From assembly GCA_014905825.1 (NCBI GenBank), contig JACGCN010000009.1:62001-126000 (forward strand): a DNA stretch of 64,000 nt, read 5' to 3'. Source of the DNA: Lyophyllum atratum (lineage: Eukaryota > Basidiomycota > Agaricomycetes > Agaricales > Lyophyllaceae). The notes under the pieces are model-generated. The model did no database searches. It saw only the letters and a program-made list of their open reading frames with translations, and was not told the origin of the DNA. Shown here piece by piece: positions 43,616 to 64,000 of the stretch; position 1 is the stretch's first letter; the number at the start of each line of letters is the position of its first letter. The position numbers were made by a program, and so were the translations under genes.

Positions 43616-44000
43616 CTAGAACGATGAGCTGCTAGATTCCGTTTTTCGAAAGGAACTCCGAGATCTTGCCATGGATCTCCTCGAGATGATTCTCCAATGC
43701 GAAATGCCCTCCATCCACAAGATGGACCTCAGCATTAGGAAGAACCGTCTTAAACGCCTCCGCCCCCGCCGGCATGAAAATAGGGTCGTTCTTGCCCCAG
43801 ACGGCCAGGACTGGTGGCTGATGCGCGCGGAAATATTCACGGAACGTAGGATATAACTCCAGATTCTCACGATCTGGTATCACCTGTCATAAGCTAAGCA
43901 GGAGGCTGCAGACCGAAAAGGTCACGCACAGTCATAGAACAGTTTAAGCTGGATCTCAGCGTTCCCTGGTCGGTCAAGCAGGGCTTGGTCGAGATAGTAT
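43616..44000 (-). pseudogene. Alpha/beta-hydrolase, C-terminal part cut by retroelement A
   Basis: Reads YLDQALLDRPGNAEIQLKLF (about 43995-43935), then after an intron NLELYPTFREYFRAH, VLAVWGKNDPIFMPAG and VDGGHFALENHLEEI. This is the cap end and the C-terminal Asp/His part of a haloalkane-dehalogenase-like alpha/beta hydrolase; the Asp (GKND) and His (DGGH) are intact. Homology stops abruptly at about 44000, where the LTR of element A starts. The N-terminal half with the nucleophile is absent from the window and should lie beyond A's other end. Confidence 0.8.
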
Positions 44001-44307
44001 TATTGGAGATAGGATCGCGTGTACGCGTTAGGATCACGTGGGACGCGCGTGACCCGTCTCCCGCTCTCCCTGTCGAGGGATAGGCTTAGAAAGACGGAAG
44101 CATTTTTGGTACTGTACAGTTTATACCTATACGGACGGACCGGACGAATGCATGTACCTCAGTCGTTCTATTACACCGACTGAGGTACGTGCCATAGTAT
44201 ACTTACTTATCACACCATGATACTTACCTCTACTTTAGTCTTTCTGCAACAGGTATATACCGAATATATCAGTCGTTCTATTACACCGACTGAGTCTTTC
44301 TGCAACA
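44001..44307 (+). repeat. 5' LTR of element A
   Basis: The right end is fixed by CA directly before the primer site at 44308. The left end is inferred: TATTGGAGAT at 44001 resembles the TGTTGGG and TGTTGAG starts of the LTRs of B and C, with the first G mutated to A, and hydrolase homology ends just before it. Internally it holds a hairpin (44154-44188, 12-bp perfect arms GTACCTCAGTCG), a box AGTCTTTCTGCAACAGG at 44237 and 44293, and a second hairpin at 44269-44293. Confidence 0.65.
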
Positions 44308-44320
44308 GGTTATGGGCCCC
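44308..44320 (+). promoter_or_regulatory. Primer binding site of element A
   Basis: GGTTATGGGCCCC directly after the LTR. It is complementary to the anticodon-loop region of initiator tRNA-Met (GGGCCCATAACC), the half-tRNA primer used by Drosophila copia. Confidence 0.7.
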
Positions 44321-44444
44321 GTTGCACTTGAATAAATTCTCAGTCACATACTCTGAATTGCTGCTACTACCGAAACCGAAACAACGACTGCGAATTACCT
44401 GAAAACACCACCCTACCCACCCCTAAAAATTTCTACTGCCCGGA

Positions 44445-46746
44445 ATGTCCAACCCAGCGTTGTTCCTCCTCCCCGCCGACGAAAAATTCAATGGCGACAA
44501 TTGGCTCGCCTTTAAAACTACTATCCACGACGCTGCTGAGGCTCGCGGCGTCCTCGGCTACCTCGAGGGCACTATCAGCCCCCCCGACCCCCCCAGCCCC
44601 TCCGACCCCCCCGCTCCCACCACTAGTTACTGGGGCTCGACCAGTCCTACCCCCGACGAGTGGGCCCAGCGCAATGCCTACGCGAAGGGTCTGATCACCC
44701 TGAACGTCGTTAATCCTATCGGGCAGGGTGTCCGACGGGACGGGACCGCAGCTGAGACATGGTCGTCACTCACCGCCATCCACGACGTGCAGTCCGATCT
44801 CGCGCTCATCAACGCCGAGGAAGCTTTAGGCGCAATTAAATTCAGCGACGGGGGGAACATTGGCACTCACTTCGCTGAAATGCGCACTGCCTGGGGCAAA
44901 GCGAACGCGCAGGGGGCCGATATATCTGATGCGAAGTTCCGGATGTATATCTTGAAGTCCATGCCGAGGAACGCGACATGGATCGCGCTGTTGGGAGCGC
45001 TGGTCAGCGAAACAACGGCAGCGGCGGTCATCACTCGGCTTACCACCCATGCACTCCTAGCCAGCCCCACCTCGAACGTCGCGACCTCCAAGTCGGCACA
45101 TGCACTCTCTGCTCAGTTCCCAGGTGGCAAGCACCCGGTACGCAACCCCGAACTAAAATGCACCAACCTACCGAACTGCGGCCGTACCGGTCACACCACC
45201 GACAAGTGTTTCCGCCCTGGAGGCGGACTAGCGGGTCAATACCCCGAGTGGTGGAAAGGTCCTCGCACCACCGCTCCCAGCGCACCCGCTGCTGCTGCTA
45301 CCCCACAGACACCAGTCGCGAACTCCGCGGTCGTCTCGGCTACCAACTCAGCGACGACCCGATGCCTAGCATTCTCCACAGTTACAGCTGAGCTAGCCGA
45401 CCAGGGATCGCGACTTAGCTACGCCGACTCAGCCGCCAGCCAGCACTTCTTTGTTGACCGAGGAGATTTCGAGGCGTATGAAGCCATGGCGGATGGTGTC
45501 GGGATGACCGCGAGCGGGGGGAAATTCACTATCTTGGGGAAAGGTCGTGTTAGGAAGGTGGTAATGCATGAAGGAGAGATGATCGAACTTACGTTTGACG
45601 GCGCGCTACACACCCCAGACCTTGACCACAACCTCATATCCATCGGCTCCCTCGACCAAAAGGGCTGCACCATAATCTTCGGCGGCGGATGCGCCACATT
45701 CTACGGACCCGACGGGAAACCATTCATGCGTGGCGACGCGCACAACGCAACCATGTATCGCGTCGAATTCGTCAACCGACCAGTGGCGATGTCAGCGCGC
45801 TCCCTAAAACAACCAGCCGATATCGAGACGTGGCACCGACGACTGGGCCACGCCGGGGAGAGTATCCTCCGCGACATGATCAGAAAGGAGATCGTCGACG
45901 GCCTCGACGTGACGAAGGCGTCCTCGAGGGGTCGTTGTGAGGATTGCATAATGGGGAAGCATTCACGCCGACCTTTTGATCAGGAGGTGATACCGGAATG
46001 CGAACCCATCGAGCGCGTAGCCTTCGACCTCTGGGGACCAGCACGCGTAAAGACGACCGGTGGGAAGCAATACATGATGCTCGGGTGCGATCAGGGAGGT
46101 GCAGGGACGGAAGGTTACTTCTTGGCGGATAAAACCAAGGAGACCACGGGGGCGGTTCTGGCAGCGTACCACACGGCGATGGAAAGGCAGACAGGGTTGA
46201 AGCTGAAGGTGATTCGCACCGACGGTGGGGGAGAGTTTGTCAATTCAGTGTGGGAAGAGTACTGCAAACGGTTCGGGATCACTCACGAAACGGTCGCCCC
46301 CCACTCATCCGCAGCCAATGGCGTGGTGGAACGCATGAATCGCACGATCCTGGACCGCGGACGCAGCATGCTGGTCGATGCCGGACTACCTCCTCACTAC
46401 TGGGGGGAGGCTATGGCAACAGCTGTCTATCTGTCACAGTTCGTCCCCTCATCACGCCACCCAGGGAAATCGCCATACGAGATCCGAACTGGGAAGAAGC
46501 CCGACATCGCTCACCTCAGACCCTTTGGGTGCTACGCCTACGCCAAGATCCCCGAGGAGGACGGCGGAAGCAAATTAGACGCCCGATCCGTCAAATGTGT
46601 GCTGATCGGCTATTTCGGGCGCGGCGATTACAAGCTCCTCGATCGATCGAACGGACGCATCTTCAGATCTCGTGATGTCATCTTTGAGGAAGGACCCCCT
46701 AACCGCACCCTACTGCCCGCGCCAGACGACGAGCCCGAAGACGATG
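44445..46746 (+). pseudogene. Element A gag-protease-integrase part of polyprotein
   Basis: Open from ATG 44445 (MSNPALFLLPADEKFNGDNW, the copia Gag N-terminus) to the insertion of element B. A zinc knuckle (CTNLPNCGRTGHTTDKC) lies near residue 240. The protease site reads YADSAASQH, with Ala in place of the usual Gly of DSG. Pre-integrase HHCC (WHRRLGHAG then CEDC) and integrase follow, with D, D and E in AFDLWGP, IRTDGGGEF and NGVVERMN. It is cut in the linker between integrase and RT. The rest of the polyprotein is at 58230-60042. Confidence 0.88.
46742..46746. repeat. Left target-site duplication of element B (CGATG)
   Basis: CGATG directly before the LTR start at 46747; repeated at 58225-58229 after the right LTR. 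Five bases is typical of Ty1/copia integration. Confidence 0.9.
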
Positions 46747-47029
46747 TGATGGCCCGGTGAATCTGAACACGCGAAACGACAGTGATCCTCAGTGTCAGGG
46801 GAAATGGAAAGACAACTTTGTATTTATACCTGAACACGCGAAACGACAGTGCTAGGATCAAGTAAGTGAGTGAGGAAAAGATGAATGACGAGTAGGTATA
46901 CGTACATCCTCAGTGTCAGGGGAAATGGAAAGACAACTGAGGATGCGATGGGGCAAAAGCCGGGAGGTATATCAACGAGTCACGTGAACAGACGCGGGGA
47001 TAAGAAACGGGGATAGTATAGACCCAACA
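46747..47029 (-). repeat. 3' LTR of element B
   Basis: 283 bp; in the sense direction it runs TGTTGGG to CCATCA. It contains a 10-bp perfect inverted repeat (CATCCTCAGT 46905-46914 with ACTGAGGATG 46936-46945), a second copy of the hairpin's left part, and the box CTGAACACGCGAAACGACAG twice. Confidence 0.92.
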
Positions 47030-47090
47030 CAACCCCATCAACGCGGAAGTGAAGAGGGAAGTACGATATAGGACGGGAAGGAGGGATATG

Positions 47091-47972
47091 TCATGCGCGA
47101 GTGACTAGTCCAAGAGATTTGCAGTGTACGAGATGAGTAGCGAGAGGTAGGAGCTTTGTAAGTATGTCGGCGGTCATAGCAGTCGTCGGTACCCAAGAAG
47201 TGGCGAAGGATCCCGTTTTGATGTGTTCACGGATGAAATGATAGCGGATGTCGATGTGCTTGGAGCGAGAGGAAGTATTATCAGAGTTGGCAAGAATAAT
47301 AGCACTCTGATTATCGCAGAGGAGCGGGAATGGATGAGGTACCGGGAGACTGAGTGAGTGGAGGAACAACCGGATCCATAGGGCCTCTTTCATCGCATGC
47401 GACATCGCCATGTATTCTGCTTCAGTCGAGGAGAGAGCGGTAGTCCGCTGGCGAACGGAGCTCCAGGAAATGAGGCTGCTGTACATGAAGAACACATATC
47501 CGGAAACACTCCTGCGAGTCTTCACATCAGACACCCAATCGGCATCCATCATGCCACAGTTGCTTGGAAGAAGGAGTTGCAGCGGCGGTCCAACTGGCGT
47601 TTGCTCGAAATTGTACTCGAGAGAGTATTCGGCGGTACCTGCGAGGTAGCGAAGGACACCTTTGGCAGCAAGAAGATGGGTGCGAGTTGGATTGGCGTTG
47701 AATTGTCCAAGCGACATGGCAGTGAAGGCAAGATCGGGGCGCGTGCAGAGCGCGAGGTACAGAATGGAGCCGACCAGGCGCTGGTAGTGAACGGTGACCT
47801 CGGAGTCGGGGATTTCGGGAAGGGAGTTGGGCGGAGCCTCGGGTAGATCAGACATGCTATGACGGAGAGGTAGAGATAAGGAGTGGGCATCGAGGAGATT
47901 GTAAGTAGTAAGTAATTCAGTAATAAAATGCTTTTGGGAGAGCCATAACTTTCGGTTCGGACGGTCACGAAC
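47091..47972 (-). pseudogene. Element B RNase H end of polyprotein, out of frame
   Basis: RT C-terminus and RNase H: VGSILYLALCTRPDLAF, then GMMDADWVSDVKTRRSVSGY, ALSSTEAEYMAM, LLCDNQSAIILA and KHIDIRYHFIREHI, the full copia RNase H signature, ending at 47091. It is one base out of frame with the preceding RT segment. The extra base lies near 47975 (removing one A in ACTAATCG restores Thr-Ile-Val-Arg-Asp-Arg). Confidence 0.88.
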
Positions 47973-49801
47973 GATTAGTACGTATACCTAGGTAAAGGGA
48001 GGCGGCACCAAGGTCGACGACCTTGAAACTCTTGTTCATTTCGGCAAGAATCCAGTTGTAGAGTGGGACGGAATTGGTGGTAGTGAGGCAGTCGTCGACG
48101 TGTACTGGCATTATGATGATGAGGTCGGCGCCAGACTTGGGCATGGGGACCGAGGGATCAGGCGATGACGAGAAACGGCCGTAGAAAACCGCATGGTCAA
48201 CTTCACAACGGATGAGGCCAATACCTTCAATGACCTGCCGGAAACGATTGTACCACTCGTGAGAGGACTGCTTGAGCCCGTAAAGGGCGCGAGTGACGAG
48301 GTAGACAGTGTTGGGGTCAGATTCTGGGAATCCTGGGATCTGCTTGCAGTAGACTTCATGTGACAAGAGGGCGTTCAAGAACGCAGTCTTAACATCGCAG
48401 CACATGAGCTCGAGGTCGTGCTGAGCAGCAAAGGCGAGGACAATCCGGATGCTGGACATCTTCACGACTGGCGCATAAGTGCTGCCGTAGTCTTCTGGAC
48501 GTTGGAGGTAGCCCAGGGCAACCAGACGAGACTTCTCCGCTCCACGAATGATCGAACCGTCAGGATTCAACTTGAAATCGTATACCCAGCGAACGCCGAT
48601 AGCCTTGCGACCAGCGGGCAGAGAGGTGGGTTTAAAAACACCAAGCTCTTGGAGGCTGTCATATTCGCGGCGCATTGAGGCTTGCCAGATATCGCGGTCA
48701 GGACGACGGAGGGCTTCAGTATAGTTGTCGGGAGGTCGATCAGGGTTATATTTTGGGGGTATGCGGAACCGAAGTGGATCAGGATGTGCAAGGAAGGCTT
48801 TGAAGTCGAGAATGGTAGGGATCTCGAGGGAGACTAGATCTTCAGGATCGTGACTGAATTCCTGGGAGTTAAGAATTCCCAGAAAGTCCATAATCGCCGG
48901 GAGAGTCTGCTGTGGATGGACAGACCCAGCGTTGTCTTTCGTACGGTTAGCACGGAGACGGACGAGGTTTTCATCGCGAAGTCGAATGGCTTCAGTATAC
49001 ATCCGGCCTTTATCCGTAAGTGCCGCATTGCGACGGGGGCGTACGGGAGGAGGAGGTGTAGGAACCACAGGAGGGGTCAAACTTTCACGGGGAGGTGTGG
49101 ATGGCGTCGGCGATGAAGGTGGGGAGACGATGGTAGTTGGCAAGGGCTCAGTAGTAGGAACACGCTTGAGTTTCCCTTGAACGTTCTCATTGAAAACGAC
49201 ATCTCGTGAGAAGTGGTATTTGCCGTTCGTGTCGCGGACTCTCCAGCCAACTCTGTGCTCCTCGTAGCCGACGAAAATGGCCTCAAACCGCTTCGGACCA
49301 CCCTTTGTACGGAGCTCGGAAGGGATCAGGACAAAACATTGGCAACCCCATACGCGGAGGTGGGAGAGGTCAGGTTTCGTCTTTTCCATGACCTCATAAG
49401 GCGTAGTGGAAGGAGGGAGAGTCGAGGTAGGGAGTCTGTTGCGGAGATATTGGCTAGTAAGCACTGCGTCGCCATGGAACGAAGGTGGAAGGCCGGACTC
49501 GGCCATGAGTGTCTGAGCAGTTTCCTCTAGAGTTCGAATATATCGTTCCGCCTTGCCATTCTGCGAGTGAGCATAGGGAGCGGTGACCTGGTGTATGATA
49601 CCCCGAGTGTTGAAATGATCTCGCAATTCTCCACCAGTGAACTCGCCAGCACCGTCGGACCTGACAGTGTGTACCTTGTTACCCGACTTCCGTTCCCACT
49701 TGGCCTCAGTTGACTTGTAATGGGCAACAGCGTCGTCCTTGTGAGCAAGTAGTTCGGTACTACCGTAGTTCGAGCGATCATCGAGTATGACATGGAAATG
49801 G
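47973..49801 (-). pseudogene. Element B integrase (C-terminal part) and reverse transcriptase
   Basis: Starts mid-integrase at the insertion site of C: HFHVILDDRSNYGS, then VRSDGAGEFTGG and NGKAERYIRTLEE (second acidic residue and Glu of DDE). A Pro-rich linker is followed by RT: VRWVYDFKLNPDG, CDVKTAFLNALL, YGLKQSSHEWY and the catalytic VHVDDCLTT. It ends at a stop just after a frameshift near 47975. Together with 55002-57779 it forms one gag-pol frame. Confidence 0.88.
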
Positions 49802-49806
49802 GTCTT
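49802..49806. repeat. Left target-site duplication of element C (GTCTT)
   Basis: GTCTT directly before the LTR at 49807 and again at 54997-55001. Removing C plus one copy rejoins B's integrase frame as Pro-His-Gly-Lys-Thr-His-Phe-His. Confidence 0.92.
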
Positions 49807-50211
49807 TGTAGAATATCACAAATAAGTAAACCTTAGTGTCCAGACACGGTGTGTAAAGACGACTGGTATTGACCTGTAGAATATCACAAATAAGTAAACT
49901 ACGAGGTCAATCAGTAACGAACGGTAAAGTAGAAGTAAGTAAGAATGCTCACCCTTAGTGTCCAGACACGGTGTGTAAAGACGACTAAGGGTGGTCTGTG
50001 TAGGTACGTCTAGTATGTACACGAAGGAAATAGAGTTCGAATAAAGACTAGCAAATAAGCGCCGGCTTGACTGAATTGAATGGAGGTCTCGATGCACGGC
50101 ATCGAGGCGTAACGAATAAGCGAGAATCTAATTATAGTGACCGTGGACGAAAAAGGAAATAATATGAGATACGTAGCGTGATATGGGTCTTGGTTAAGTC
50201 TAACCTCAACA
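49807..50211 (-). repeat. 3' LTR of element C
   Basis: 405 bp; sense end points TGTTGAGG and ATTCTACA. Contains ACCCTTAGT (49951-49959) with its reverse complement at 49984-49992, another copy of the same hairpin segment near 49831, and the box TGTAGAATATCACAAATAAG twice. Confidence 0.95.
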
Positions 50212-50221
50212 CTCCCCCAGA
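50212..50221 (-). promoter_or_regulatory. Polypurine tract of element C
   Basis: In the sense direction CTGGGGGAG lies directly before the 3' LTR, the position and composition expected of the plus-strand primer. Confidence 0.75.
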
Positions 50222-50232
50222 CGACCAAGATC

Positions 50233-53200
50233 CTAATTGAGGTTGAGGAGTCCGATAAAGCGCTCGTGGAGTAGTCGAGGAAGTGGTTTGGTGAAGATGT
50301 CGGAGAGATTGTCGGAGGATGGGATGTGTATAACTTCAATGTCTCCGTCCTTGACGCGTTCGCGAATATAATGGTGTCGGATATCGATATGTTTCGCGCG
50401 GGTGTGTCCCTTGGTAGTGCGCGTCAGTGCGATGGCGGAGGTGTTGTCACAACGAAGCGTGGCCGGCAGCGCTTGCGTGAGGTCCACCTCGGCGAGGTAG
50501 TTGTGCATCCAGAGTCCTTGTTGCGCTCCACGCGTCAAGGACATGTATTCGGCCTCCGTGGTAGAGAGAGCGACGGTCGGCTGTCGTTTCGAGCTCCAGG
50601 AAACGGGTCCTCCAGCCATCATGAACACATACCCACTCGTAGACCTACGGGTATCGTAGTCTCCCCCATAATCCGCATCCACATATCCTATAGGCTTGAT
50701 GCCGCCCGCCCCCTTAGAGTACGTGATGCTATAGTCCAATGTACCCTTGATATATCCCAGGACATGCGTCATAGCCTTCCAGTGTGCTGGGCCGGGGTTC
50801 GATTGGAAGCGGGCGAGCAGACCGACAGCGAACGAAATGTCAGGGCGGGTGGCGACTTGTGCCCACATGAGTGACCCAAGGAGTTCGCGATACGGCTTAT
50901 CCTTCATGTATAGACGGTCTGCATCTGAGCGAGGGGATTGGGTGTCGTCGAGGCGTAGGCCGGCAGGAAGTGGGGTAGGATGGGGGTTCGCGTCTGTCAT
51001 GCCGAAACGCTGTAGTACTCGCTCGAGGTAAGCCCGTTGTGAGAGGGAAATCGCACCCGTGGTCGCGTCGCGGTCCACCCGCATACCCAGAATATACTTT
51101 GGCTCCCCCAGATCCTTGATCTCGTAGCACCCAGCTAGCTCCTTCTTCGCTACAGTGGACCCGGCGGTGGTGGATGATACCCCGAAGATGTCGTCAGTGA
51201 ACGTGCAGGTGATGGTTCGCTCGCCGTTGACAATCTTCGAGCGTACGCAGTTGTCAGCGCGTGAGGAGCGGTACCCGATTTTGGTGTAGGCGCGGTCGAG
51301 GTTATGCCACCAGTCATACCCGCCCTGCATCATGCCGTACAGGGTTTTGAGGAGTAGGCACACCTTACCCTCCCCCCCACGAAACCCGGGCGGCACGCGC
51401 ATGTAGACAGTGTGTTCCAAGACACTGTTGAGGTAGGCGGATACAAAATCGACCTGCCAGATGTGGAGACCCTGGTCAGCAGCGATGGCGGCGGTCATCC
51501 GCATGGACTCGAGGCGCACGACGGACGCATAAGTCTCATCAAAATCCTCCCCCTGCACCTGAGAGAACCCCTTCGCCACCAAGCGAGCCTTCCGCTTGAC
51601 AATGTTCCCATCCGCGTCGAACTTGTGCGCGTAGACCCACATGCAATCTATAACCTTCTTCCCAGGAGGTACAGACGACGCAGGCACAAGTCGAAACACC
51701 TCCCGATCCTGCAGGATGTTAAGCTCCGTCTCCATCGGCGCGTTCCACAGATCAGGACGGCGCACGGCCTCCCCGTAGTGTTTAGGCAGGTAATCATCGG
51801 AGGACGAGGTGGTGGTGGTCAAGGATGCCAAGAACGCGTGCATGTCGTTGGCGGCCTCCGGGTGTGGGGTGTCAGTAGCCCAATCTTCGCCAGCGGCGCG
51901 TGCAGAATCCTCCCTATCCTGAGTTTCGCGCGCGGCTATGATCGCAGGCGTGGGATCCGCGTGACGGCGGGATCGTCGCAAGGCAAGGGGTAAGTCATCC
52001 GGGGCTGGTGGTGCAGCCGCAGGTGTGTGGGGTTCATCCGGGGTGTGGGGTGCGGGGTGTAGTGGACCATCGGTGTCACGAATACGGGGCGCAATAGGTT
52101 GCTTGCGAGGAATAATGGCAGGGGTGGCTGGATCAATGGGTGGTTCGACGTCGGCGAGAAGGTGGTCGTCGCTGAGGATGGTGATGGCGCGGTGTCCGAC
52201 GCCCTCGTCGAAGATTACATCCCGGCTGGTAATAATAGAACGCGTGCCTTGATCGAACAATTTGTATCCGTTGTCCGAGTACCCGACCATGACGTAACGG
52301 ATCGATCGAGGGTCCAATTTAGAAACCACGAGCTCCTCCGGGATCTTAGCGAATGCCGTGCAGCCAAAGGGGCGTAGATGTGCGACACCTTGGCGCTTCC
52401 CAGTCCATGCCTCCTCGGGAACTACATCGGGGTGACGCGAAGAGGGGATGAGGTTACGGACATATACCCCGGTGTTCCCGGCCTCGGCCCAAAGGTACTT
52501 CGCAAGACCGCTGTCGGCGAGCATGCACCGAACGCCCTCTATGATGGTGCGTATAGAACGTTCGGCAAGTCCATTCTGGGGGTGCGCGTATGGGGTGCTG
52601 ACCTCCAGAATAATCCCGTGCTCACCGCAGTACTCGAACCATAATGCGTTTATCCACTCCCGGCCTGCATCAATGCGGCACCTCAACAACTTCTGACCCG
52701 TCTGACGTTCGGATTCCTGGTGGTAGGACTTGAACGCTGATAATGTGGTTACTGCGTCCTTCCTTGACAGATAAAACCCACGCATCCTAGATGTTCCCCC
52801 ATCGACCACCAGCATCATGTACAGGGCTCCCCCGAGGGATGGTGTGGACGCGGGTCCCCAGAGGTCGATATGACACCTCTCATTCGGTTTGGTCTCCGGT
52901 ACGACTATGCCATCATAGGGGCGAGCTGCGTGTTTCCCATACACACAGTCCTCGCATAGACCCTCCACAGCTAAGTTCCCCTGAACGTGTAACCCATCAA
53001 CTAGTCCCTTTCTGACCAGGTTGCGTATGCCAGTAACGCCGGCGTGCCCCATGCGACGATGCCAAGTATCGAGATTGACGGGTATGTCGAGCGAGCGTGC
53101 GACCATCACCTGGACAGGCGCTCGAGTGGCTCCCACAGATTCGAGGCGGTACATCCCATTCTCCCCGATGCCCACCATGAAAACCCTCCCCTTTGGATCG

Positions 53201-54516: not shown

Positions 54517-54578
54517 GTGGGTAAAGTGAATGTTTGAGTTCGTCTGGTTTGTGTCTGGGTGATTTAGAAGCTAACGGC

Positions 54579-54591
54579 GGGGCCCATAACC
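54579..54591 (-). promoter_or_regulatory. Primer binding site of element C
   Basis: In the sense direction GGTTATGGGCCCC directly follows the 5' LTR. It has the same match to the initiator tRNA-Met anticodon arm as element A. Confidence 0.75.
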
Positions 54592-54996
54592 TGTAGAATA
54601 TCACAAATAAGTAAACCTTAGTGTCCAGACACGGTGTGTAAAGACGACTGGTATTGACCTGTAGAATATCACAAATAAGTAAACTACGAGGTCAATCAGT
54701 AACGAACGGTAAAGTAGAAGTAAGTAAGAATGCTCACCCTTAGTGTCCAGACACGGTGTGTAAAGACGACTAAGGGTGGTCTGTGTAGGTACGTCTAGTA
54801 TGTACACGAAGGAAATAGAGTTCGAATAAAGACTAGCAAATAAGCGCCGGCTTGACTGAATTGAATGGAGGTCTCGATGCACGGCATCGAGGCGTAACGA
54901 ATAAGCGAGAATCTAATTATAGTGACCGTGGACGAAAAAGGAAATAATATGAGATACGTAGCGTGATATGGGTCTTGGTTAAGTCTAACCTCAACA
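54592..54996 (-). repeat. 5' LTR of element C
   Basis: 405 bp, apparently identical to the copy at 49807-50211; even the chance open frames inside both copies translate identically. Followed by GTCTT. Confidence 0.95.
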
Positions 54997-55001
54997 GTCT
55001 T
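54997..55001. repeat. Right target-site duplication of element C (GTCTT)
   Basis: Second copy of GTCTT, directly after the LTR end CAACA. Matches 49802-49806. Confidence 0.92.
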
Positions 55002-57779
55002 GCCATGTGGGGTTTGGACGGGGAAAGGGCCACAGGTGTCCATGTGTAGAAGCTCGCAGACCTCTTCGGCGCGACGGCCAAAATGATCATAAGGGTGTTG
55101 TGGGTGTTTCCCAATAAGACAAGGGATACAATGACTGGTTGAGAAATGACCAGTGTACTCAACCCCAGTCGCATAGGGCTTTGTCAAAACCGCACGCGTC
55201 GCATCAAGGCCAAGATGTCCGAAACGGCGATGCCACAATTCTGGTGTTGCCTCGACACGCGGAAAAGTGGTACCTGAATCATTTAGGGCGATGGCTGGGA
55301 GCGAGATGTCCTGTTCGACAGATACGACTGGTGGGATGAAGTCGCATTGAAGAAACGACAAACGACGGACAACGGTGGCGTCTATGGAGGGACCATCATT
55401 GGGGAGGTGGATAGTGGTTGCGTCGCGCTCGAAAACGAGTTTGAGGTTGTTCTCAGTCATTGTTCCGACAGATAGTAAGTTGATCGGAACATCAGGAGCA
55501 TGAAGGCAGTCCTGAAGGCGAATGGTGATGTGGGCACCATCAACAAGGGCGCGAAACCGGACTTCCCCTTTCGCAAGGGTTTTGAGCGTACCACAGTTCG
55601 CTGTTCCAACTGGGGTGGCGAGTTCAGGATGGTATGTCCAGAAATGCCGCTTATCCTTGATGATGTGGACGTTGCAACCGGAATCAAGGATCGAGTTGAA
55701 ACGTTCCGACAGGGATGCGAGGACGACTGGTTCGGTCGCGTCGACAAATTCATGGTAGAAGCGAGTCGAGGCATCCGCGATGGCGTCCTTGATGAATTCA
55801 GGGGAACACGCAACATAAGCCTCAACGATCTCGTTGGAAGATTCTACAACATCGGTATTATCTGCGGATTCTTCGATGGTAGCAAGATGTGCACGATTCT
55901 TTGCCAAGTAACGCTCCCGACCACCAACATCGCCACCTCCTTCTTCCCAGCACTGCGGTCCCAGATGGCCAAGGCGTCCGCAGTTCGAGCAAACCGGACG
56001 AGAGTCTGTGGTCGTAAGGGTTGTAGTGGTGTTAACGGCGGGCGTAGCAGACGAAGAAGTAGGAGTAGGAGCAGAGCGAACAGGACGAGGATTAGGATTC
56101 TTATTGCGTATGAGTGATGAAGTCGTGCGGCGATATTCAATGTCAATGGTAGTGGCTTCACGTGCAGCGTCTTCGAAGGAGACAGTGCCATTGGGAGGGT
56201 TCTGAGCGAAACCAGTCCGAACTCTGTTGCGAAGAGCTTGGTAGTGGAACGTCTGAGGGAGGCCATCAATGAACTTTTGAACGCGGTCGTACTCCGAGAA
56301 GTCCCATGGTGTGCCTTGGAGCTTCAAAACAGCATCGCGCCAAGCGAGGACCTAGGCAGCGACGGTGTCGAGGGTAGCCTGGTGGCGGTAGACGGCAGTC
56401 TTGACGATATCAGCTGCGCCAGCTTCTCCAACACTATACTCCTTCCTTAGGATATCGAGCACATCTCGAGCGACTCGTTGGGGGTAGCCAAAAGCGTCGC
56501 GTTTGTCGGGGATGATCGCCTTCCCAGCAGGACAGACCTTGGTCGAGAGGACGTAGGAAACGATGTCATCATTTCTCCACCAAGCGAGATATGCGGTGCG
56601 TTCGGCGTCCGTGAAGGTAGCGGTGAGCTGGGGAGCGAAGGTGGGGACGCTCGACGGGTCGGCAAACATACCAGGCGGCGGAGGCGCAGCAATGTGTCCG
56701 TAAAGGCCAACACTCTCGATCAGCGACGTGACGGCAGAGTACCACCGGGTCCAGTCATCCGGGGAGGAAAGGGTAGGAATGTGAGTGACAATAGGAAGAT
56801 CAGTCTTAGTATACGTGGGTACAGTAGCAGTAGCAGCAGGTACAATTTGTGGGTTTGGTAACGAGAGCTTTGGAATTGCGGGAACAGAAGATGCGACAGA
56901 ATGAGAGCGATAAGAATAAGAACGAGACGATGAAACGGAATGGGGACGAGACGAAGCAGGCGTGAATTGATGTTTCGGAAGGGGAGTAAGATTATCTATA
57001 TTTCGGTTTGCAAAACGATTGGGAGTGGGTGAGAAAGGAGGAACGTAGCCTTTCGGCGGGGTGGGGGTAAACGTAGCGCGAGCGGGGGGAGGGGCAGATG
57101 CAGCGTGATGAAGGAGGCGAAAAGCAGCAGAAGAGGGACGAGCAGAACTTGGAGGGGAAAGAGCAGCAGAAGGAGGACGAGGTGGGGGAGGGGGAGGGGG
57201 AGGAATGGGAGGTTGATGATCTAAAATGGGAGAGAAAAGATGTTGTTGGGGATAACGGGGAGCAGGTTGAACTGTAGAACGAGGACGAAATGGAGAAGCA
57301 GAAGTAGCGGGATAACGATTATAAAGGTGAGGAGTTACTGGAGGAACATTCATTGTATTAGGATGGGCTGCAGGAATATTTGGATTGCTCGATGCTATGG
57401 TGGAAGGGGGAAGAGGAATGAGTTCAGGAATGTTGATATATGCGGGTGCAGGGATGCCTTGGGCAGGAGTACAAGGAGGTTCAGAGTAAGTCGAAGGGTA
57501 ATGAAGGGCCTGGGTCTGACACCACGAAGCTAAAGATGGAGGACGATTATTAAGTAGGTACGTATCTGAACAAGGTCGAACAGGGAAAGAATGCGGAGGA
57601 TGGAGACTGGATGACTGGGGCGGTTGCCGATGCGTCTGGGACCACGGAGCGAGTGTTGGCGAAGTGACCGATGCAGGTATATGCTGGTGAGTCGGCGTCG
57701 AGGCAGAAAGCGACGGGGAGAGGGGATTACCACCGAGATCGAGGTGATCGAAAGCGGATCCAAATGGGTCCTCGGCCAT
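55002..57779 (-). pseudogene. Element B gag, protease and integrase start, with in-frame stop
   Basis: Starts at ATG 57779 (MAEDPFGSAFDHLDLGG) with a long Pro/Ser-rich Gag leader. An amber codon at 56352-56354 interrupts Gag, and the same frame continues with VLAWRDAVLKLQGTPWDF. Then come a zinc knuckle (CSNCGRLGHLGPQC), the protease site LDSGCNVHI, pre-integrase WHRRFGHLG with CIPC, and HMDTCGPFPVQTPHGKT, the first Asp of the integrase triad, where element C is inserted. The only lesion seen in this part is the amber codon; a CAG-to-TAG change would explain it. Confidence 0.9.
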
Positions 57780-57930
57780 GCTGGTGGACGGAGGCAATAA
57801 AAGAGATCGTGATCGATTAAGATCGCGTTGATCGATGGCAACGGCGATGGAGATAACTGAGGCAAAAACCTATGGAAAAGTGAGTTGTCGGTTCCGAGAC
57901 ACGAGGTGTTCCTGTGTTATAGATCTAGGG

Positions 57931-57941
57931 CGCCCATAACC
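57931..57941 (-). promoter_or_regulatory. Primer binding site of element B
   Basis: In the sense direction GGTTATGGGCG follows the 5' LTR. It shares the first ten bases with the primer sites of A and C and then diverges. Confidence 0.65.
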
Positions 57942-58224
57942 TGATGGCCCGGTGAATCTGAACACGCGAAACGACAGTGATCCTCAGTGTCAGGGGAAAT
58001 GGAAAGACAACTTTGTATCTATACCTGAACACGCGAAACGACAGTGCTAGGATCAAGTAAGTGAGTGAGGAAAAGATGAATGACGAGTAGGTATACGTAC
58101 ATCCTCAGTGTCAGGGGAAATGGAAAGACAACTGAGGATGCGATGGGGCAAAAGCCGGGAGGTATATCAACGAGTCACGTGAACAGACGCGGGGATAAGA
58201 AACGGGGATAGTATAGACCCAACA
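57942..58224 (-). repeat. 5' LTR of element B
   Basis: 283 bp, one visible difference from the copy at 46747-47029. Bounded on the right by CGATG. Confidence 0.93.
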
Positions 58225-58229
58225 CGATG
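58225..58229. repeat. Right target-site duplication of element B (CGATG)
   Basis: Matches 46742-46746 exactly and lies directly after the LTR end CCAACA. Confidence 0.9.
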
Positions 58230-60042
58230 TACCAGAACTCGTCGAGCTAATCTTTGACGAGCCTATCCAAGAGAACATCGCGCCACCAGCACCCGGTCCG
58301 GACCGTCTCGCAATCGAGGCTCCCGCCCCCGAGCCTGAGCTACGCCGCTCTGCGCGCATCAAAAACCCATCATCGGCGGCTGTCAACGCAGCTGCCACAG
58401 AAGCAGACGAGGCCTCCGCGGCGGCCCGTGGTCTCGACTGGGCCAGAGGTAACAAGATCCCCACGGGCACAGCACTCTCTGCCACCACAGACATCGACGG
58501 ATGGATACCGAAATCGTACTCAGAGGCAATGACGAGACCGGACTTGTGGAAGGGACCCATGGATGAGGAGATAGCAAGGATGCACGAGCGAAAGGTGTGG
58601 AGATTGGTTGAGAGGCCGGATGGGGCGAGGACTATGAAGAATAGGTGGACGTTCGCGCTGAAGTACGACGCAGACGGGAAGTCTGCGGGAGGAAGGCGCG
58701 ATTGGTGGCAAAGGGTTTCTCCCAGATCCCAGGTGTCGACTTCTTCGCAAGCTACGCGTCCGTGGTGAAATACGAGTCACTACGGATCAACCTCGCGTTG
58801 GGCGCCCTCGAGGACCTCGAGATATGGCAAATTGACTACGCCAGCGCCTATCTCAACGCGCCGAACCAGGTACCGGTCCTCATGGAACAGCCCGAGGGCT
58901 ACGAAGTCACACCCAGCCAGATCTTTGAGATCACACCGTCGTCAGGAACTAGGATCGAGGGGGAGGACGCGTCGGATGATAAGAGGGGGCTCGTGGCGCT
59001 GGTGGACAAGGCGATATATGGGACTATGGACGGAGCATACAATTGGTGGAAAACATTGGACGAGGACATGGGAAGGATGGGGTATATACGGTCTAGGGCG
59101 GATCAATCGGTGAGGTCGAGGATGGATGATGAGGGGAGGACTATCACAAGCACGTACACAGACGACACCACCGGCATGTCCACTTCGAAGAAGGAATGGG
59201 AGCGAGCGGTACGAGAACTGGGGGAGAACTGCAAGATAAAGGACCTCGGGCCCATCAAGCTCGTACTCGGCATCCGTGTCATACGCGACAGACAGTCGCG
59301 CCTCCTCACGATGGACCAGGAGGAGTATCTGAAGCGAGTTCTCGACCGCCACGGGATGACCGACTGCGCGCCGAAATACACCCCACTACCACCTGGCGTC
59401 GTCCTCAACAAGTCGCAAGCGCCCACTACCGACGAAGACAGACAATTCATGGAGGATAAACCCTACAGCGAGGTGCTCGGCGCGATCATGTACGCTCAGA
59501 TCGGGACTCGCCCAGACCTATCCTTCGCCGTCGCCTCTCTCAGCCGTTACTCATCGAACCCAGGGAAAGCGCATTGGCAGGCACTTATGCACGTCCTCCA
59601 GTATATCAAGGCGACCTTACATTATAAACTACGCTACGGGGGACATGGGTTCGACAACTACACTCCCCACGGATACGTCGACTCGGATTTCGCTGCTGAC
59701 AGCGACTCACGTCGGTCAGTCACAGGGCTTGTCTTCATCCAGGCCGGTGGACCGACGCTGTGGGGAGCGAAGTACCAGGCAACCGTCGCCACATCCACTA
59801 CCGAAGCGGAATACATGGCTATGGGGCGAGCGGTTGAACAGGTTCAGTGGATGTACGCGTCCCTCCAGGAGATCGGCTATCCGCAGCCTCGCCCCGCTGT
59901 GCTTCATGGCGACAACAACGGCGCCATCTCCATCGCAGAAAACAAAAGGAACCATAACCGCGTCAAGCACATCGATGTCCGCCATCACTTTATCCGCGAA
60001 CGCGTCGAAGCCGGCGATGTGGCCATCACATATATCCCCAGC
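58230..60042 (+). pseudogene. Element A reverse transcriptase and RNase H, truncated
   Basis: Continues element A after the insertion of B: a linker with APAPEPELRRSARIKNP, then RT. A one-base loss near 58681 shifts the frame between YDADGK and VCGRKARLVAKGFSQ. Downstream RT boxes are intact (IDYASAYLNAPNQVPVLM, IYGTMDGAYNWWK, TYTDDTTGMST), as are RNase H signatures (YVDSDFAADSDSRRSVTG, TSTTEAEYMAM, LHGDNNGAISIA, KHIDVRHHFIRERV). It stops at AITYIPS, where family members continue DN-(L/T)-(A/S)-DIFTKPL; the sequence after it is foreign. Confidence 0.88.
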
Positions 60043-63000
60043 CAAGGGTGTACCGGCCTGTGAAAAACTGACCCGGGGTCGGAATTATTTTTTCGACCAT
60101 GAGCAGGGGACTAACCAACTACGTAATCAGGCACATGTCTATATATAGTAATTCCGATTTCCGACCACTGTGAGATCATCGTCGTCGAGCGGCTCTTGCT
60201 CTCTTCGCCGTTCCAGACGACGAGCAAGAATCACAGACCCAACCACGGAGTGCTAGTTCCAAATCAACACATACTAAATGATACTATGATACACAGAAGG
60301 TAAGTTTTTAGGCTTCACTCAGCGAGGAATGACTCACAACGCCTGTTTCACAACCAAGCCTATTGCACTTGACAGTTTCCATCGACTCCTCCGCGATCGC
60401 TCCGCACAAGCACTCGCCACGGCCTGCAATAGCAGTCGGCTTCCGCTTACGGCACAAACGCGAGTTTTCAGCCACGGGCGTGCCTTGGGCTTCATTGACA
60501 GGTGGCGGGACAAATGCGGCATTCAAGATGTTGCGAGACGCTGCGGCCGGAGGCTCCTCATCCACGGCTGGGTGTACTGAAACACGACCTGTAGGTGAGT
60601 CTGGATGTACCAATGGCTCTTGTCCTTGATTGACAGGCGGCGAGGCAGACATCGAGTTTGAGGCACCTCCCGGCATCGTGGAATCCTCGCTGGGCACATC
60701 GGCACTTGGTGGATGCGAGGAGGCTGAGCTATCCAGCAAATTACAGGAATACTCGTTAGGGAAATGCAGTGGACTGGGTGGATTCGAATAGGGCTGGATA
60801 ATTGGGATCGAGCTCTCTGGTGAGTACCTATCCAATGCTAAATAATAATTCACTCACCCAGTCCTCAAATGGTTCTTCCGCGCCAATTCTGGATTCGTTC
60901 TCGCTCGCATGTAAGCCGCTGCCGTCGCCTTCTGCGCTGTGAGCATCCTCCTGCGCTTGAAACTCGTCGGACTCGCTTTCAGAGTCGGCTCCAGCCTCAT
61001 CACTCGCGGCATCGATCTCCAGGCCATCGTCACCTTCCATCGGTCCACTATCCTGGCGTCAACACGGAATATGATTGAATGAAACAACTTCTCTTACACG
61101 AGTGCTAAACGCGAGCTATGCGCGGCTGAAACCTCGAGGTGAGGAAGCTGCTTCTTTATCACGCGCTTAACGATGACTTTGTGACGATCCTTCCAGACAC
61201 GCTTCATTGCCGCCTTCTCGAAGTTGGAAAGATCCGATACCGAGCTGTAATCAGCGAAGATCACTGTTGGATGCGTTGATTCGAAGTGGGCCTTCCAATT
61301 GTAGCGCCAGACCGCCGGTGATGTCTTAACCGGACACAGAGGACATGAAACTGGTACATTTGAACACGGTGAGGTGGCTGTCGAGTTCGCCGCCACAGCA
61401 TATTTAAAGTTTACCATGTTAGGGCAACCACGCGACCGCGTCGTGTCAATCTTAGGGCCGCCGTCTGCGCCCTTGCTCTTGGTCAAGAAGAATCGACAGA
61501 GTGCAGAAGGGCGAAGGCACAGACCACATGGTTCTGTCGAGAGGCCGGGTTTTCGATCGTGTAGAATGTGCGCGCCAACATGCGCCAAGGTTTGTTGTGG
61601 ATGCTTGGTATCGAAAGGAACTTCCGGCGAGCATCTTGGGCAAACATGCGAGGTGGATAGTTCGAGTGTACTGTTCTCCGCATCACCTAGAAAACAAGCT
61701 TTCCCTGTACAAGTTCAACAGCTAACTTATCTCGTGAATATACCAAAGACTTACCAGATCTTTCCCGGTATGGAAACTCCTTTGTGCGTTGCAAGGTTGG
61801 TATATTTGACCTGTCGCTGCGCTTGAACTTTTCGAGGAGGCTTGATGTGAGCGCGACCATCGTGCCGCTTTCCATCAAGTAAAAAGAGTGGAAAAGCTCT
61901 TTTGTCACGTATGTTGGGTCGATGGCTTCGATGAGACAGCCGGGTACTGTGAATGTATGTTTGTCGGAGAATTTATACGACCTCCAGTCATGATTGAGGC
62001 TTGGATCATCCGTTGAGGTCGCCGGCCTGAATCCGAGCACCTGATACGATACACTAACCGTGGATTCATTGAGTACGTCGAGAGGAATGTGGCTGACATT
62101 CTGGGTGTCGATTTTGAGTCCGTTGACTTCGCCGATGCAGAGCCAGAGCCGGTTTTCGCATGAAACGAGTGTAGCGAGAGGGTCATGGCCAAAGAGACTC
62201 GGTTGGCCGAGTTCTGACGTGCTGAACTCGGTGTCAGGATTCGTCCGTTTTGTGTACCGTTCTACCTCTTGGACACGTTTCAAACGGTCCGTTGAGCTTG
62301 CCTTCTTGTTGTATCTGCTTCGCATGGAAAGGGCGCGTGATTTCAGGATTTTTTTGCCATTAACCAGGAGGAAGCGGTCGAACGATGTCGAAGTCGAAGC
62401 TGCTGATGATGTCAGGGAGTTGGAACCATGCTCGGGGATTTCGTCTTCTTCGTCTTCTCCCAGTGCGTCTTCAATTTCGACTCGAACATCATCCACATCC
62501 GATGCGGTGTTCGCAGATTGCACCCGTGGTGAGGGACATTCAGGGAGCTCTACACTTTCATCAACATCGTCGTCATCGAGAGGGATATTGACTAGTAATA
62601 CACCAAACGGTGACAGGATGTCCGCACTTGGGCAAGTCTCGACGGCTTCGAGTTCCTTTATCACAAAGGGACATTCCTTCTCTATAAGAAGCCGACCGCG
62701 CTTCCATGAAGTCTGAAGGGAGACATACTTCACATATACATTACCTTTCCACGAGCCAGGCTTGATATGGTCAGAGCTGTCTGGAAGCTCGAGTAAGTCA
62801 CGGGTGATAGCGGGGAGTTTAAGACGGCGAGGAGCACGATCCCAATGAGGGTACTTGGCTAGGATATTAAGTACTTCGATTGTACCAGTGATGCGGTCAC
62901 TGAGTTGAAGGATGTCGAGATTCGAGTCGTTTCCGATCATCGTGCGGAGGACACCAAAAAGCTCTTCAAGTCGATCAGTACCAAGGAGTATGATCCAGAA

Positions 63001-64000
63001 TGCGCCGTCCGGACTATCGATCTTGGCCTTTGCGATGCAAAAAATGACGTTCTTGATCATGATCATGAGGTCAATGTAGAGAAGAGTCGGGATAAACTGT
63101 TGGCGAGATTGATAATAAAGCGCGAGTGCGAGATGTGCTGCTGCGCTCAGATGCTCGACCTGCTCGGATAAGGTGAGGTCGATGCAGAGATAAGGAAAGA
63201 CCATGTGATAGAGGAGTTTCCCTAAGGTCCTCAGTGACTCTCGCGCCGCGAGGAAGCCAGGAGTCGAGCCTTCGCGTGCCGGGGGAAAGGACCAGATATC
63301 TTTCAGTAAGTCAAAAGCAAGCTTTACATCCTGTTGATCCTCGGGGTTGAAGAGAGAATTGATGTGTTGCGAGGAATGGCCCATAGACTGCAGGTGTATC
63401 TTAATGATGGAAGGGGTAATTCGGACACCTGCTATAACGATGCCTCGCACTCGAAGAAGAAGGTTTCGAAAACGCTTGATAACGTGCTTCCAGTCCTTGT
63501 CAGCAGTAATATCATCATCACCCACATGCTGATTCATGAGACGGAGAGGTGAGATGAGTGGGAAGACTTTCGAACTGACAGGTAGTTTTGACTTGAAGGT
63601 AAGGATCGCAAGGGACGATCCCCGTCGCGTCTCACCATCGGAGGCTATAGACACAATACGCAGTTTAGTTGTGGGAAGCTGGCTATTCACGCCGTCGAGA
63701 AGAGTCTGGATTAGTTTGGCATGCTGTTGGCCAGTCTCGCGTTTACAGTCGCCCGAGATGAGGACAGGACGAGCAGGATAAATGCGATTGTTGTTGCTCA
63801 GGACACCTAGTGCGCCAATCGTTGCCTAGGGTCAAGCGATAGAGGTCAGCGTGAGACACGATCAAAAGTCAGGCACTGACCTCAGCAGCTGTGTGAACTT
63901 CTCCTTCGTCTATACACCGAAACAATTCCTCCATGTCATCCTCCGTGGTGAACTCCAGCGACGTGTTGTGTCCATGGGCTCGGCACACTCCCAGAAATTT
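60043..64000 (-). mobile_element. Putative DNA transposon D, left part, inserted in element A
   Basis: Begins where element A's RNase H breaks off (CAAGGGTGTACC at 60043). The first 130 bp contain nested inverted repeats: a CCCGG-centred palindrome, and GGTCGGAATTA (about 60075) against TAATTCCGATTTCCGACC (about 60150), as often seen at transposon ends. The rest is one large minus-strand gene. The other end and any target duplication lie outside the window, so class and borders are inferred. Confidence 0.5.
60308..64000 (-). CDS. Transposon-associated zinc-finger protein, 5' end outside window
   Basis: Minus-strand gene running off the right edge. From the edge: VCRAHGHNTSLEFTTEDDM, an intron (about 63826-63880), then VLISGDCKRETGQQHAKL, RIVSIASDGETRRGSSLAI, LMNQHVGDDDITADKDWKH, LFNPEDQQDVKLAFDLL, LSEQVEHLSAAAHLALALYY, FWIILLGTDRLEELFGVLRT and a long acidic part. 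After another intron come two C2H2-like fingers (CPRC with HVGAHILHD; CPLC with HFESTH), an acidic exon and a PHD-like Cys cluster (CLCGAIAEESMETVKC). Asp in GDCKRE and SDGE are candidate catalytic residues of an RNase H-like transposase. I recall many agaricomycete copies, which suggests a transposon protein; the superfamily is not certain. Confidence 0.6.

What the first reader, a model, noticed from the sequence alone, without database searches (positions are those of the whole stretch)
43616..64000. Four-layer nest of mobile elements in a hydrolase gene
Element C lies in B's integrase (TSD GTCTT), B lies in A's gag-pol (TSD CGATG), A cuts an alpha/beta-hydrolase gene, and a separate transposon D cuts A's RNase H. 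Removing C and then B, each with one target copy, rejoins open frames exactly. The LTR differences (C none, B one base) and the number of lesions follow the nesting order, so the insertion history can be read directly.
Basis: seen in the sequence. Interest (0 to 1): 0.8.

Follow-up and report, generated by a model that had tools for sequence, protein, structure and literature searches.

The report
Jumping genes with self-restoring LTR introns
The nest of four mobile elements is real but ordinary; the surprise is that the end repeats of its three retrotransposons each contain an intron plus a ready-spliced copy of the same exons, as if the elements are copied from spliced RNA yet restore the introns every cycle.

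Summary
The nest is real. Copia element C sits in copia element B (TSD GTCTT), B in copia element A (TSD CGATG), and A in an alpha/beta-hydrolase gene (TSD AGTAT; the presumed other haplotype is an empty site). DNA transposon D sits in A. A's 3' LTR lies just outside the window and is identical to its 5' LTR (307/307), so LTR differences (A 0, B 1, C 0) do not follow the nesting.

The unexpected part is inside the LTRs. In element sense each reads promoter - X1 - [GT..AG, 54 nt] - Y1 - [GT - AATAxA - X2Y2 - AG] - PBS, where X2Y2 equals X1Y1 exactly spliced. In this 64.8-Mb fungal genome, 60 LTR copies found by repeat structure alone (50 types) have GT..AG at the X1/Y1 boundary in 49 of 50 types (0.46 expected). 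X and Y differ between families but match within an LTR. Two families have a simpler one-intron form, and one element has lost intron 1 exactly from both LTRs.

Best reading: splicing assembles the 5' end of the RNA, strong-stop cDNA lands on X2Y2 in the unspliced 3' LTR, and the introns return each cycle. No RNA data were available; one genome only.

The parts
44001..44307 (+). Element A 5' LTR (3' LTR identical, outside the window at 66273-66579)
44161..44184 (+). A exon X1, starting at the putative transcription start AGTCG
44185..44238 (+). A intron 1, 54 nt, GTACGT..TTTAG
44239..44252 (+). A exon Y1
44253..44308 (+). A inferred intron 2: spacer T with AATATA (44253-44270), X2 (44271-44294), Y2 (44295-44308); its last base is the first base of the PBS
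   Evidence: splicing inferred
44150..44192 (+). A inverted repeat around X1: left arm upstream of the start, right arm over exon end and donor
44308..44321 (+). A primer-binding site GGTTATGGGCCCCG
57942..58224 (-). Element B 5' LTR: X1 58101-58133, intron 1 58047-58100, Y1 58025-58046, X2 57980-58012, Y2 57958-57979; inferred intron 2 57958-58024
46747..47029 (-). Element B 3' LTR: X1 46906-46938, intron 1 46852-46905, Y1 46830-46851, X2 46785-46817, Y2 46763-46784
54592..54996 (-). Element C 5' LTR: X1 54738-54771, intron 1 54684-54737, Y1 54660-54683, X2 54616-54649, Y2 54592-54615; inferred intron 2 54591-54658
49807..50211 (-). Element C 3' LTR: X1 49953-49986, intron 1 49899-49952, Y1 49875-49898, X2 49831-49864, Y2 49807-49830
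49802..55001 (-). Element C with TSDs GTCTT; gag-pol ORF 50233-54570 open
46742..58229 (-). Element B (split by C) with TSDs CGATG
43996..64000 (+). Element A (split by B and D), TSD AGTAT at 43996-44000; continues to 66579 outside the window
60043..64000 (.). DNA transposon D (to 66151 outside the window), TIR CAAGGGTGTACCGG, inside A's RNase H end
43640..44000 (-). 3' part of the interrupted alpha/beta-hydrolase gene (the rest continues from 66580, outside the window)

Best explanation
The three nested retrotransposons belong to Ty1/copia lineages whose R region is split by introns inside the LTR and rebuilt by splicing. Shown from sequence: each LTR carries X1-intron1-Y1 and, downstream, a copy X2Y2 identical to the spliced product. 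Inferred cycle: (1) transcription starts at X1 in the 5' LTR; (2) the spliceosome removes intron 1 and a second intron that begins at AG|GT after Y1, contains the poly(A)-like signal and X2Y2, and ends at the AG of Y2 (in A and C this AG is completed by the first G of the PBS), so the RNA begins X1-Y1-PBS; (3) RNA read through the 3' LTR also contains the sequence upstream of the start, which folds back on exon X1 and hides the donor, so the 3' copy keeps its introns; (4) strong-stop cDNA of X1Y1 anneals to X2Y2 at the 3' end and is extended through the intron-bearing LTR. Both new LTRs therefore carry the introns, and X2Y2 is refreshed from X1Y1 each cycle.
For: Repeat structure alone, with no splice-site requirement, found the anatomy in 60 of 139 loci; the X1/Y1 boundary is GT..AG in 59 of 60 loci and 49 of 50 distinct types (0.46 expected), intron length 49-56 nt in those 49. 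X and Y differ between families but match within an LTR. In the four types seen where the LTR runs on past Y2 (B, L033, L086, L129) and in both one-intron families, GT follows the end of copy 1 and AG ends copy 2; 42 of 43 repeat pairs of 16 nt or more in the 79 PBS regions fit a splice junction. Spacer T carries a poly(A)-like hexamer in 32 of 36 types (3.8 expected after shuffling). The base before the assumed start is a pyrimidine in 36 of 36. Hairpin: fold z-score -5.5 (A) and -4.5 (B) with the upstream arm, -2.1 and +0.1 without; donor accessibility is lower with it in 31 of 36 types (by more than 0.2 in 12), mean 0.12 against 0.24, shuffled arms 0.25; arm and donor covary in the GAG class, 83 of 104 pairs against a maximum of 81 in 20000 permutations. 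One element (C72) lacks intron 1 exactly in both LTRs while 10 sibling LTRs keep it. The anatomy lies in several separate RT clades.
Against: No RNA evidence at all. Intron-2 donors are weak in A and C types (for instance GTCAAT, GTACAT, GTATAT), and there the AG|GT could partly reflect a copy of the PBS start. Hairpin covariation is not significant in the AGG class (5348 of 20000 permutations as high); in 5 of 36 types and in 3 of 4 distinct L064-like sequences the upstream arm does not lower donor accessibility, and the donor is only about a quarter unpaired even without it. 4 of 36 types lack a listed hexamer; TATA lies upstream of X1 in only 15 of 36 (8 for X2). 46 of 79 newly fetched PBS sites show no such anatomy, and 9 of 59 loci fetched by LTR similarity do not show it. 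The detector needs exact repeats, so it favours matching copies. Only one genome could be examined.
Confidence: 0.62

Rival explanations
1. Two promoters: genomic RNA starts at X2 with T as its TATA box and is unspliced, while RNA from X1 is only a spliced mRNA, comparable to the two RNA pools of BARE. X2Y2 is refreshed only when a spliced mRNA is occasionally reverse transcribed.
For: T is AT-rich (AATATA, ATAAATA). BARE has separate TATA1 and TATA2 RNA pools (passages of PMC3735527).
Against: TATA lies 18-50 nt upstream of X1 in 15 of 36 types but of X2 in 8 of 36, and T is only 7 to about 20 nt long, short for a TATA box that would start at X2. Matching X1Y1 and X2Y2 in nearly every family means that spliced RNA must be a regular template anyway.
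Confidence: 0.2
2. Only intron 1 is a real intron. X2Y2 arose by rare capture of a spliced leader and is kept similar to X1Y1 by DNA-level gene conversion; T and the AG|GT after Y1 have no splicing role.
For: Intron-2 donors are weak in A and C types, and CAGGT there resembles LTR end plus PBS start. Collapsed copies L070 and L071 could come from recombination between the repeats.
Against: Conversion between X1-intron-Y1 and X2Y2 would be expected to move or erase the intron, yet 49 of 50 types keep it in one place. One-intron families have strong donors (GTGAGT, GTATGT), and the repeat ends at the junction there and in B, L033 and L086, and 2 nt past it in L129.
Confidence: 0.1
3. Chance or plain tandem duplication inside LTRs, no splicing involved.
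Against: 0.46 types with GT..AG expected, 49 of 50 observed, with a narrow length range.
Confidence: 0.02

Closest known systems
Ty1/copia LTR retrotransposons
   Same: gag, integrase and RVT_2 domains in copia order, 5-bp TSDs, LTRs; named proteins among the best hits are from Laccaria bicolor, Agaricus bisporus and Hypsizygus marmoreus.
   Different: The R region at the RNA 5' end is not contiguous in the DNA but split by an intron, and is present again downstream as a spliced copy.
BARE1, Ogre and EVADE (plant LTR retrotransposons with introns)
   Same: LTR retrotransposons whose RNA is spliced (passages of PMC3735527, and of PMC12786077).
   Different: By those passages their introns serve subgenomic RNAs (in BARE1 and EVADE for Gag), and the BARE paper states that spliced RNA must be kept out of replication. 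Here the introns lie inside the LTR and spliced RNA looks like the regular template.
Penelope-like elements
   Same: Retroelements that keep introns through transposition (passages of PMC3846280).
   Different: Not LTR retrotransposons in the usual sense; there intron retention is put down to a different hypothesised route (self-priming, possibly on an antisense template).
Retroviruses with a splice donor in R (foamy viruses, HTLV/BLV)
   Same: Recalled, not looked up here: a splice donor within the R region of the 5' LTR.
   Different: As recalled, the acceptor lies far downstream outside the LTR, and no spliced copy of R stands in the LTR.

Membership tests
Ty1/copia | Integrase upstream of reverse transcriptase, copia-type gag and RVT_2 | tested here: met
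   Pfam hits in that order for C and, piecewise, for A and B (no gag hit among B's pieces)
Ty1/copia | Paired LTRs with short (5-bp) target-site duplications | tested here: met
   A AGTAT, B CGATG, C GTCTT
Ty1/copia | LTR ends TG..CA | tested here: inconclusive
   B and C start TG and end CA; A starts TATTGG and ends CA
Ty1/copia | Primer: initiator tRNA or a half of it | not tested
   PBS GGTTATGGGCCCC resembles the complement of an initiator-tRNA anticodon region from memory only; no tRNA gene was compared
Conventional LTR (U3-R-U5) | One contiguous R per LTR, bounded by start site and poly(A) site | tested here: not met
   X1-intron-Y1 and X2Y2 both present; 60 of 139 loci
Spliceosomal intron (intron 1) | GT..AG ends | tested here: met
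   49 of 50 types with no GT-AG filter
Spliceosomal intron (intron 1) | Removed from RNA | not testable with these tools
   No RNA data; the DNA footprint X2Y2 and the C72 loss imply it
Spliceosomal intron (intron 2) | GT..AG ends at the homology boundary | tested here: met
   4 of 4 types where the LTR runs on past Y2 and both one-intron families; donors weak in A and C types
Intron-retaining Penelope-like elements | Penelope-type reverse transcriptase and GIY-YIG endonuclease | tested here: not met
   Copia domains only
DNA transposon (element D) | Terminal inverted repeats and target-site duplication | tested here: met
   14-bp TIR, 8-bp flanking repeat matching at 7 of 8; no Pfam match for its 712-aa ORF, superfamily open

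The most novel reading that the evidence does not exclude
A replication strategy not found in the papers searched: copia retrotransposons that use spliced RNA as their reverse-transcription template and rebuild their introns every cycle, because the LTR holds the R sequence twice, once as exons split by an intron and once ready-spliced inside a second intron that also hides the poly(A) signal from the 5' end; a hairpin with sequence upstream of the start works as a position switch that blocks splicing in the 3' LTR only.
Probability: 0.55. Interest if true: 0.9.

Novelty: new variant of a known kind. Interest (0 to 1): 0.78.

Why it matters
Passage through RNA is expected to erase introns; loss of a test intron was the classic proof that Ty moves through RNA (as told in passages of PMC12786077). 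Elements that are spliced yet keep their introns across several separate copia clades would be an exception with a testable reason. They would also offer one solution to an old LTR problem, how the same poly(A) signal is ignored at the 5' end and used at the 3' end: here it would be spliced out of the 5' end. And X2Y2 would be a sequence-readable record of reverse transcription of spliced RNA.

Tried and rejected
LTR-based dating of the nest: rejected, because A's 3' LTR (outside the window) is identical to its 5' LTR and three counts of 0, 1 and 0 cannot be ordered.

Looking for the same anatomy in other organisms: viral contigs scanned with C's protein (no match) and with a 26-sequence alignment (12 stretches matched a pattern, none encodes a relative) gave nothing; no metagenome scan was allowed; one search says G000 has no relatives held. 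Generality beyond this genome is untested.

T as a TATA box for X2: weakly supported (8 of 36 against 15 of 36 for X1). Hairpin covariation in the AGG class: not significant. Hairpin in the L064-like family: no accessibility drop in 3 of 4 distinct sequences and only 0.53 to 0.49 in the fourth.

In one search GT..AG was a filter, so its 36 types are not used as evidence for GT..AG; one search repeats the detection without it. In one search the intron-2 donor was taken as the first AG|GT in the stretch from Y1 to X2, so finding one in 36 of 36 is partly by construction; I rely on the types where the LTR continues past Y2 and on the one-intron families. The printout shows antisense artefacts for L006, L052, L054 and L055; one search shows their sense anatomy. 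In one search the start was placed by rule on AGT near the homology start, and for the damaged L007, L017 and L027 further upstream.

A Pfam scan of D's 712-aa ORF gave no family; a homologue search gave 518 matches, of which 120 were listed, most of those unnamed or 'hypothetical', one called 'putative zinc finger'. D's superfamily stays open.
Full report
WHAT WAS GIVEN AND WHAT HOLDS. It is real. C's LTRs (405 nt) differ at 0 positions and B's (283 nt) at 1, with exact TSDs GTCTT and CGATG. All three retroelements are Ty1/copia by Pfam. Short 60+60-nt joins across the C-in-B and B-in-A sites are open in the element frames. The window is part of a 64.8-Mb genome in 151 contigs, window = C141:62001-126000. 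A's missing 3' LTR is at C141:128273-128579, identical to the 5' LTR over 307 nt, with TSD AGTAT on both sides. The hydrolase gene has a second copy on contig C67 at 90% identity, in the same arrangement with a neighbouring paralogue, so probably the other haplotype. It carries the target uninterrupted: 83% identity over 296 nt across the joined flanks, with AGTAT once (the join in that script was one base too long, and the alignment shows a gap there). One of two exon blocks scanned matches Abhydrolase_1, the other gave no hit. D spans 60043-66151 with a 14-bp perfect TIR and an 8-bp flanking repeat matching at 7 of 8 positions, in A's RNase H end. The claim that LTR divergence and lesions track the nesting is not supported: LTR differences are A 0, B 1, C 0, and by the ORF map B has two small lesions, A one and C none. 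By itself the nest is ordinary.

THE LTR ANATOMY. Each LTR contains two pairs of exact direct repeats. In element sense the order is X1 ... Y1 ... X2Y2, with X2 directly joined to Y2. The stretch between X1 and Y1 is 54 nt in A, B and C alike and runs GT...AG: GTACGT..TAG in A and B, GTGAGC..TAG in C. X2Y2 is exactly what splicing X1-intron-Y1 would give. A sliding scan of the window found this anatomy only in the five LTRs of A, B and C that it holds.

IS IT MORE THAN CHANCE. LTR copies were fetched from the same genome with the C, B and A LTRs as queries: 40, 4 and 25 matches, 59 of these 69 as loci. The primer-site pattern GGTTATGGGCCC has 97 sites, against 2 for its reversed control. 18 of the 97 lay in loci already in hand, all 18 with the anatomy; the other 79 were fetched. 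A detector that uses repeats only, with no splice-site requirement, found the X/Y anatomy in 60 of 139 loci (many are the two LTRs of one element). GT..AG holds in 59 of 60 loci and 49 of 50 distinct X,Y types, where 0.46 types are expected; the exception, L007, is a damaged copy. Intron lengths among the 49 are 49-56 nt. X and Y differ between families yet match within an LTR. Because detection needs exact repeats it favours matching copies. Damaged copies with mismatches were seen too (L007, L017, L040; L067, L073), and 9 of the 59 loci fetched by LTR similarity show no such anatomy; I did not study those nine. The simplest reading is that X2Y2 is copied again and again from X1Y1 through spliced RNA.

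A SECOND INTRON AND THE ONE-INTRON FORM. Y1 is followed by GT while Y2 ends in AG. In A and C types that AG is the LTR-end CA plus the first G of the PBS, so it exists only in the 5' LTR unless the 3' flank happens to begin with G. Removing GT..AG from Y1 to Y2 gives X1-Y1-PBS, the same sequence as X2-Y2-PBS. In A and C types the start of the PBS could mimic this. In B, L033, L086 and L129 the LTR continues past Y2; there copy 1 is still followed by GT and copy 2 ends in AG (in L129 both are followed by GT, so the match runs 2 nt further). Two further families (L064-like, L072-like) have a simpler LTR: R1 ending CAG|GTATGT or CAG|GTGAGT, then a spacer, then R2 ending CAG, 53-57 nt on. Only the second type of intron exists there, with strong donors. 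Of 43 repeat pairs of at least 16 nt at 30-120 nt spacing in the 79 regions, 42 fit a splice junction. Of the 79 regions 11 are two-intron, 21 one-intron, 1 two-intron with intron 1 lost and 46 neither; the 46 include damaged (L067, L073) and collapsed (L070, L071) one-intron copies.

POLY(A) SIGNAL, START SITE, HAIRPIN. The spacer between Y1 and X2 holds a poly(A)-like hexamer (variants listed by me from memory) in 32 of 36 types, 3.8 expected after shuffling. It would be intronic at the 5' end and usable at the 3' end. The assumed start, the A of AGT, coincides with the start of the exact X repeat or lies 1 base inside it in 33 of 36 types by the script's count, with 3 damaged copies placed further upstream; in L035, L040 and L098, counted as 0 there, the repeat in fact begins two bases before it. 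The base before the start is a pyrimidine in 36 of 36, an Inr-like context. An inverted repeat surrounds X1; its left arm is upstream of the start and its right arm covers the exon end and the donor. With the upstream arm, the RNA folds far better than shuffles (z -5.5 for A, -4.5 for B); RNA beginning at the start site does so less or not at all (-2.1, +0.1). Donor accessibility is lower with the arm in 31 of 36 types (by more than 0.2 in 12), mean 0.24 to 0.12; shuffled arms give 0.25. Pairing of the arm alone, type by type, is modest: p <= 0.05 in 19 of 36. In the GAG class (13 distinct arm pairs) 83 of 104 positions pair, more than in any of 20000 permutations of arms between types (maximum 81); the AGG class (8 distinct) shows no such signal, 5348 of 20000 as high. 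In the one-intron families accessibility falls in 7 of 7 distinct GTGAGT sequences but not in 3 of 4 L064-like ones. Related sequences inflate such permutations, so I treat the hairpin as moderate support. A hairpin present only in read-through RNA would explain why the 3' LTR keeps its introns.

NATURAL EXPERIMENT. In the L097 family 10 LTRs carry the 50-nt intron 1; one element on contig C72 lacks it exactly, in both LTRs, with T-X2Y2 still in place. Loss in both LTRs fits passage through RNA, the expected failure of the proposed 3' protection. L070 and L071 show R1-intron-R2 collapsed to one R, the product expected if cDNA lands on R1, although recombination between the repeats would give the same.

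DISTRIBUTION. On a tree of 36 RT pieces (27 two-intron, 3 one-intron, 6 neither) the three labels need 4 changes together; the one-intron rows form one clade (97/87) and the two-intron form appears in several separate clades. B and L098 sit on long branches and their place is unsure. The sample is biased, since many two-intron rows came from searches with the window's LTRs.

HOST. A homologue of D's protein is annotated in Lyophyllum atratum on a contig of 1,602,564 bases, the length of contig C24 here. The window is therefore probably from that mushroom (Agaricales, Lyophyllaceae). This is an inference.

COMPARISON AND NOVELTY. Ten literature searches listed nothing whose title or abstract start describes introns inside an LTR with a spliced copy alongside. 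Nearly all hits were seen only as listings. Passages were read of PMC10886601, PMC3735527 (also its abstract), PMC12786077 and PMC3846280. Most subscription papers, preprints and Repbase reports were not searchable, so prior description cannot be excluded. Known intron-bearing LTR elements (BARE1, Ogre, EVADE) are described there as using introns for subgenomic RNA, and the BARE paper argues that spliced RNA must be kept out of replication. Penelope-like elements keep introns by a different, hypothesised route.

VERDICT. Nest: real and ordinary. LTR anatomy with spliced copies: very secure from sequence. Two-intron, strand-transfer cycle with hairpin switch: likely but unproven without RNA.

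Noticed in passing
L142, L177 (C67:621350-622100): The hydrolase gene has a copy at 90% identity on another contig beside the same paralogue, so the assembly probably holds both haplotypes of a dikaryon.
   Followed up: partly
60043-64000 (to 66151 outside the window): Transposon D: 14-bp TIR, 8-bp flanking repeat, 712-aa ORF with 518 matches (120 listed, most unnamed) and no Pfam family.
   Followed up: partly
L001/L002 (C141:152337-157526) and L005/L006 (C93:163338-168522): Another copy of element C with identical LTRs lies about 40 kb away on the same contig, and LTRs at 100% (rounded) lie on C93; family C moved very recently.
   Followed up: no
L095, L143 (C72:190650-195797): Element whose two LTRs have both lost intron 1 precisely.
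   Followed up: yes
L070, L071 (C35:1181479-1186595): Two LTRs of the one-intron family about 4.8 kb apart, both followed by a PBS and both collapsed to a single R; perhaps tandem elements sharing an LTR.
   Followed up: no
L083 (C64:616496-616787): By eye, a tRNA-like stretch just upstream of a PBS-like site, perhaps a SINE or a tRNA gene.
   Followed up: no
44001-44006: Element A's LTR begins TATTGG rather than TG, although its TSD and 3' end are regular.
   Followed up: no
L021, L022, L023, L034, L044, L047, L057, L058, L059: Nine loci fetched by LTR similarity show no X/Y anatomy by the detector; not studied. By their short, partial matches some are fragments, and L057 and L058 match on the opposite strand of A's own LTRs.
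   Followed up: no
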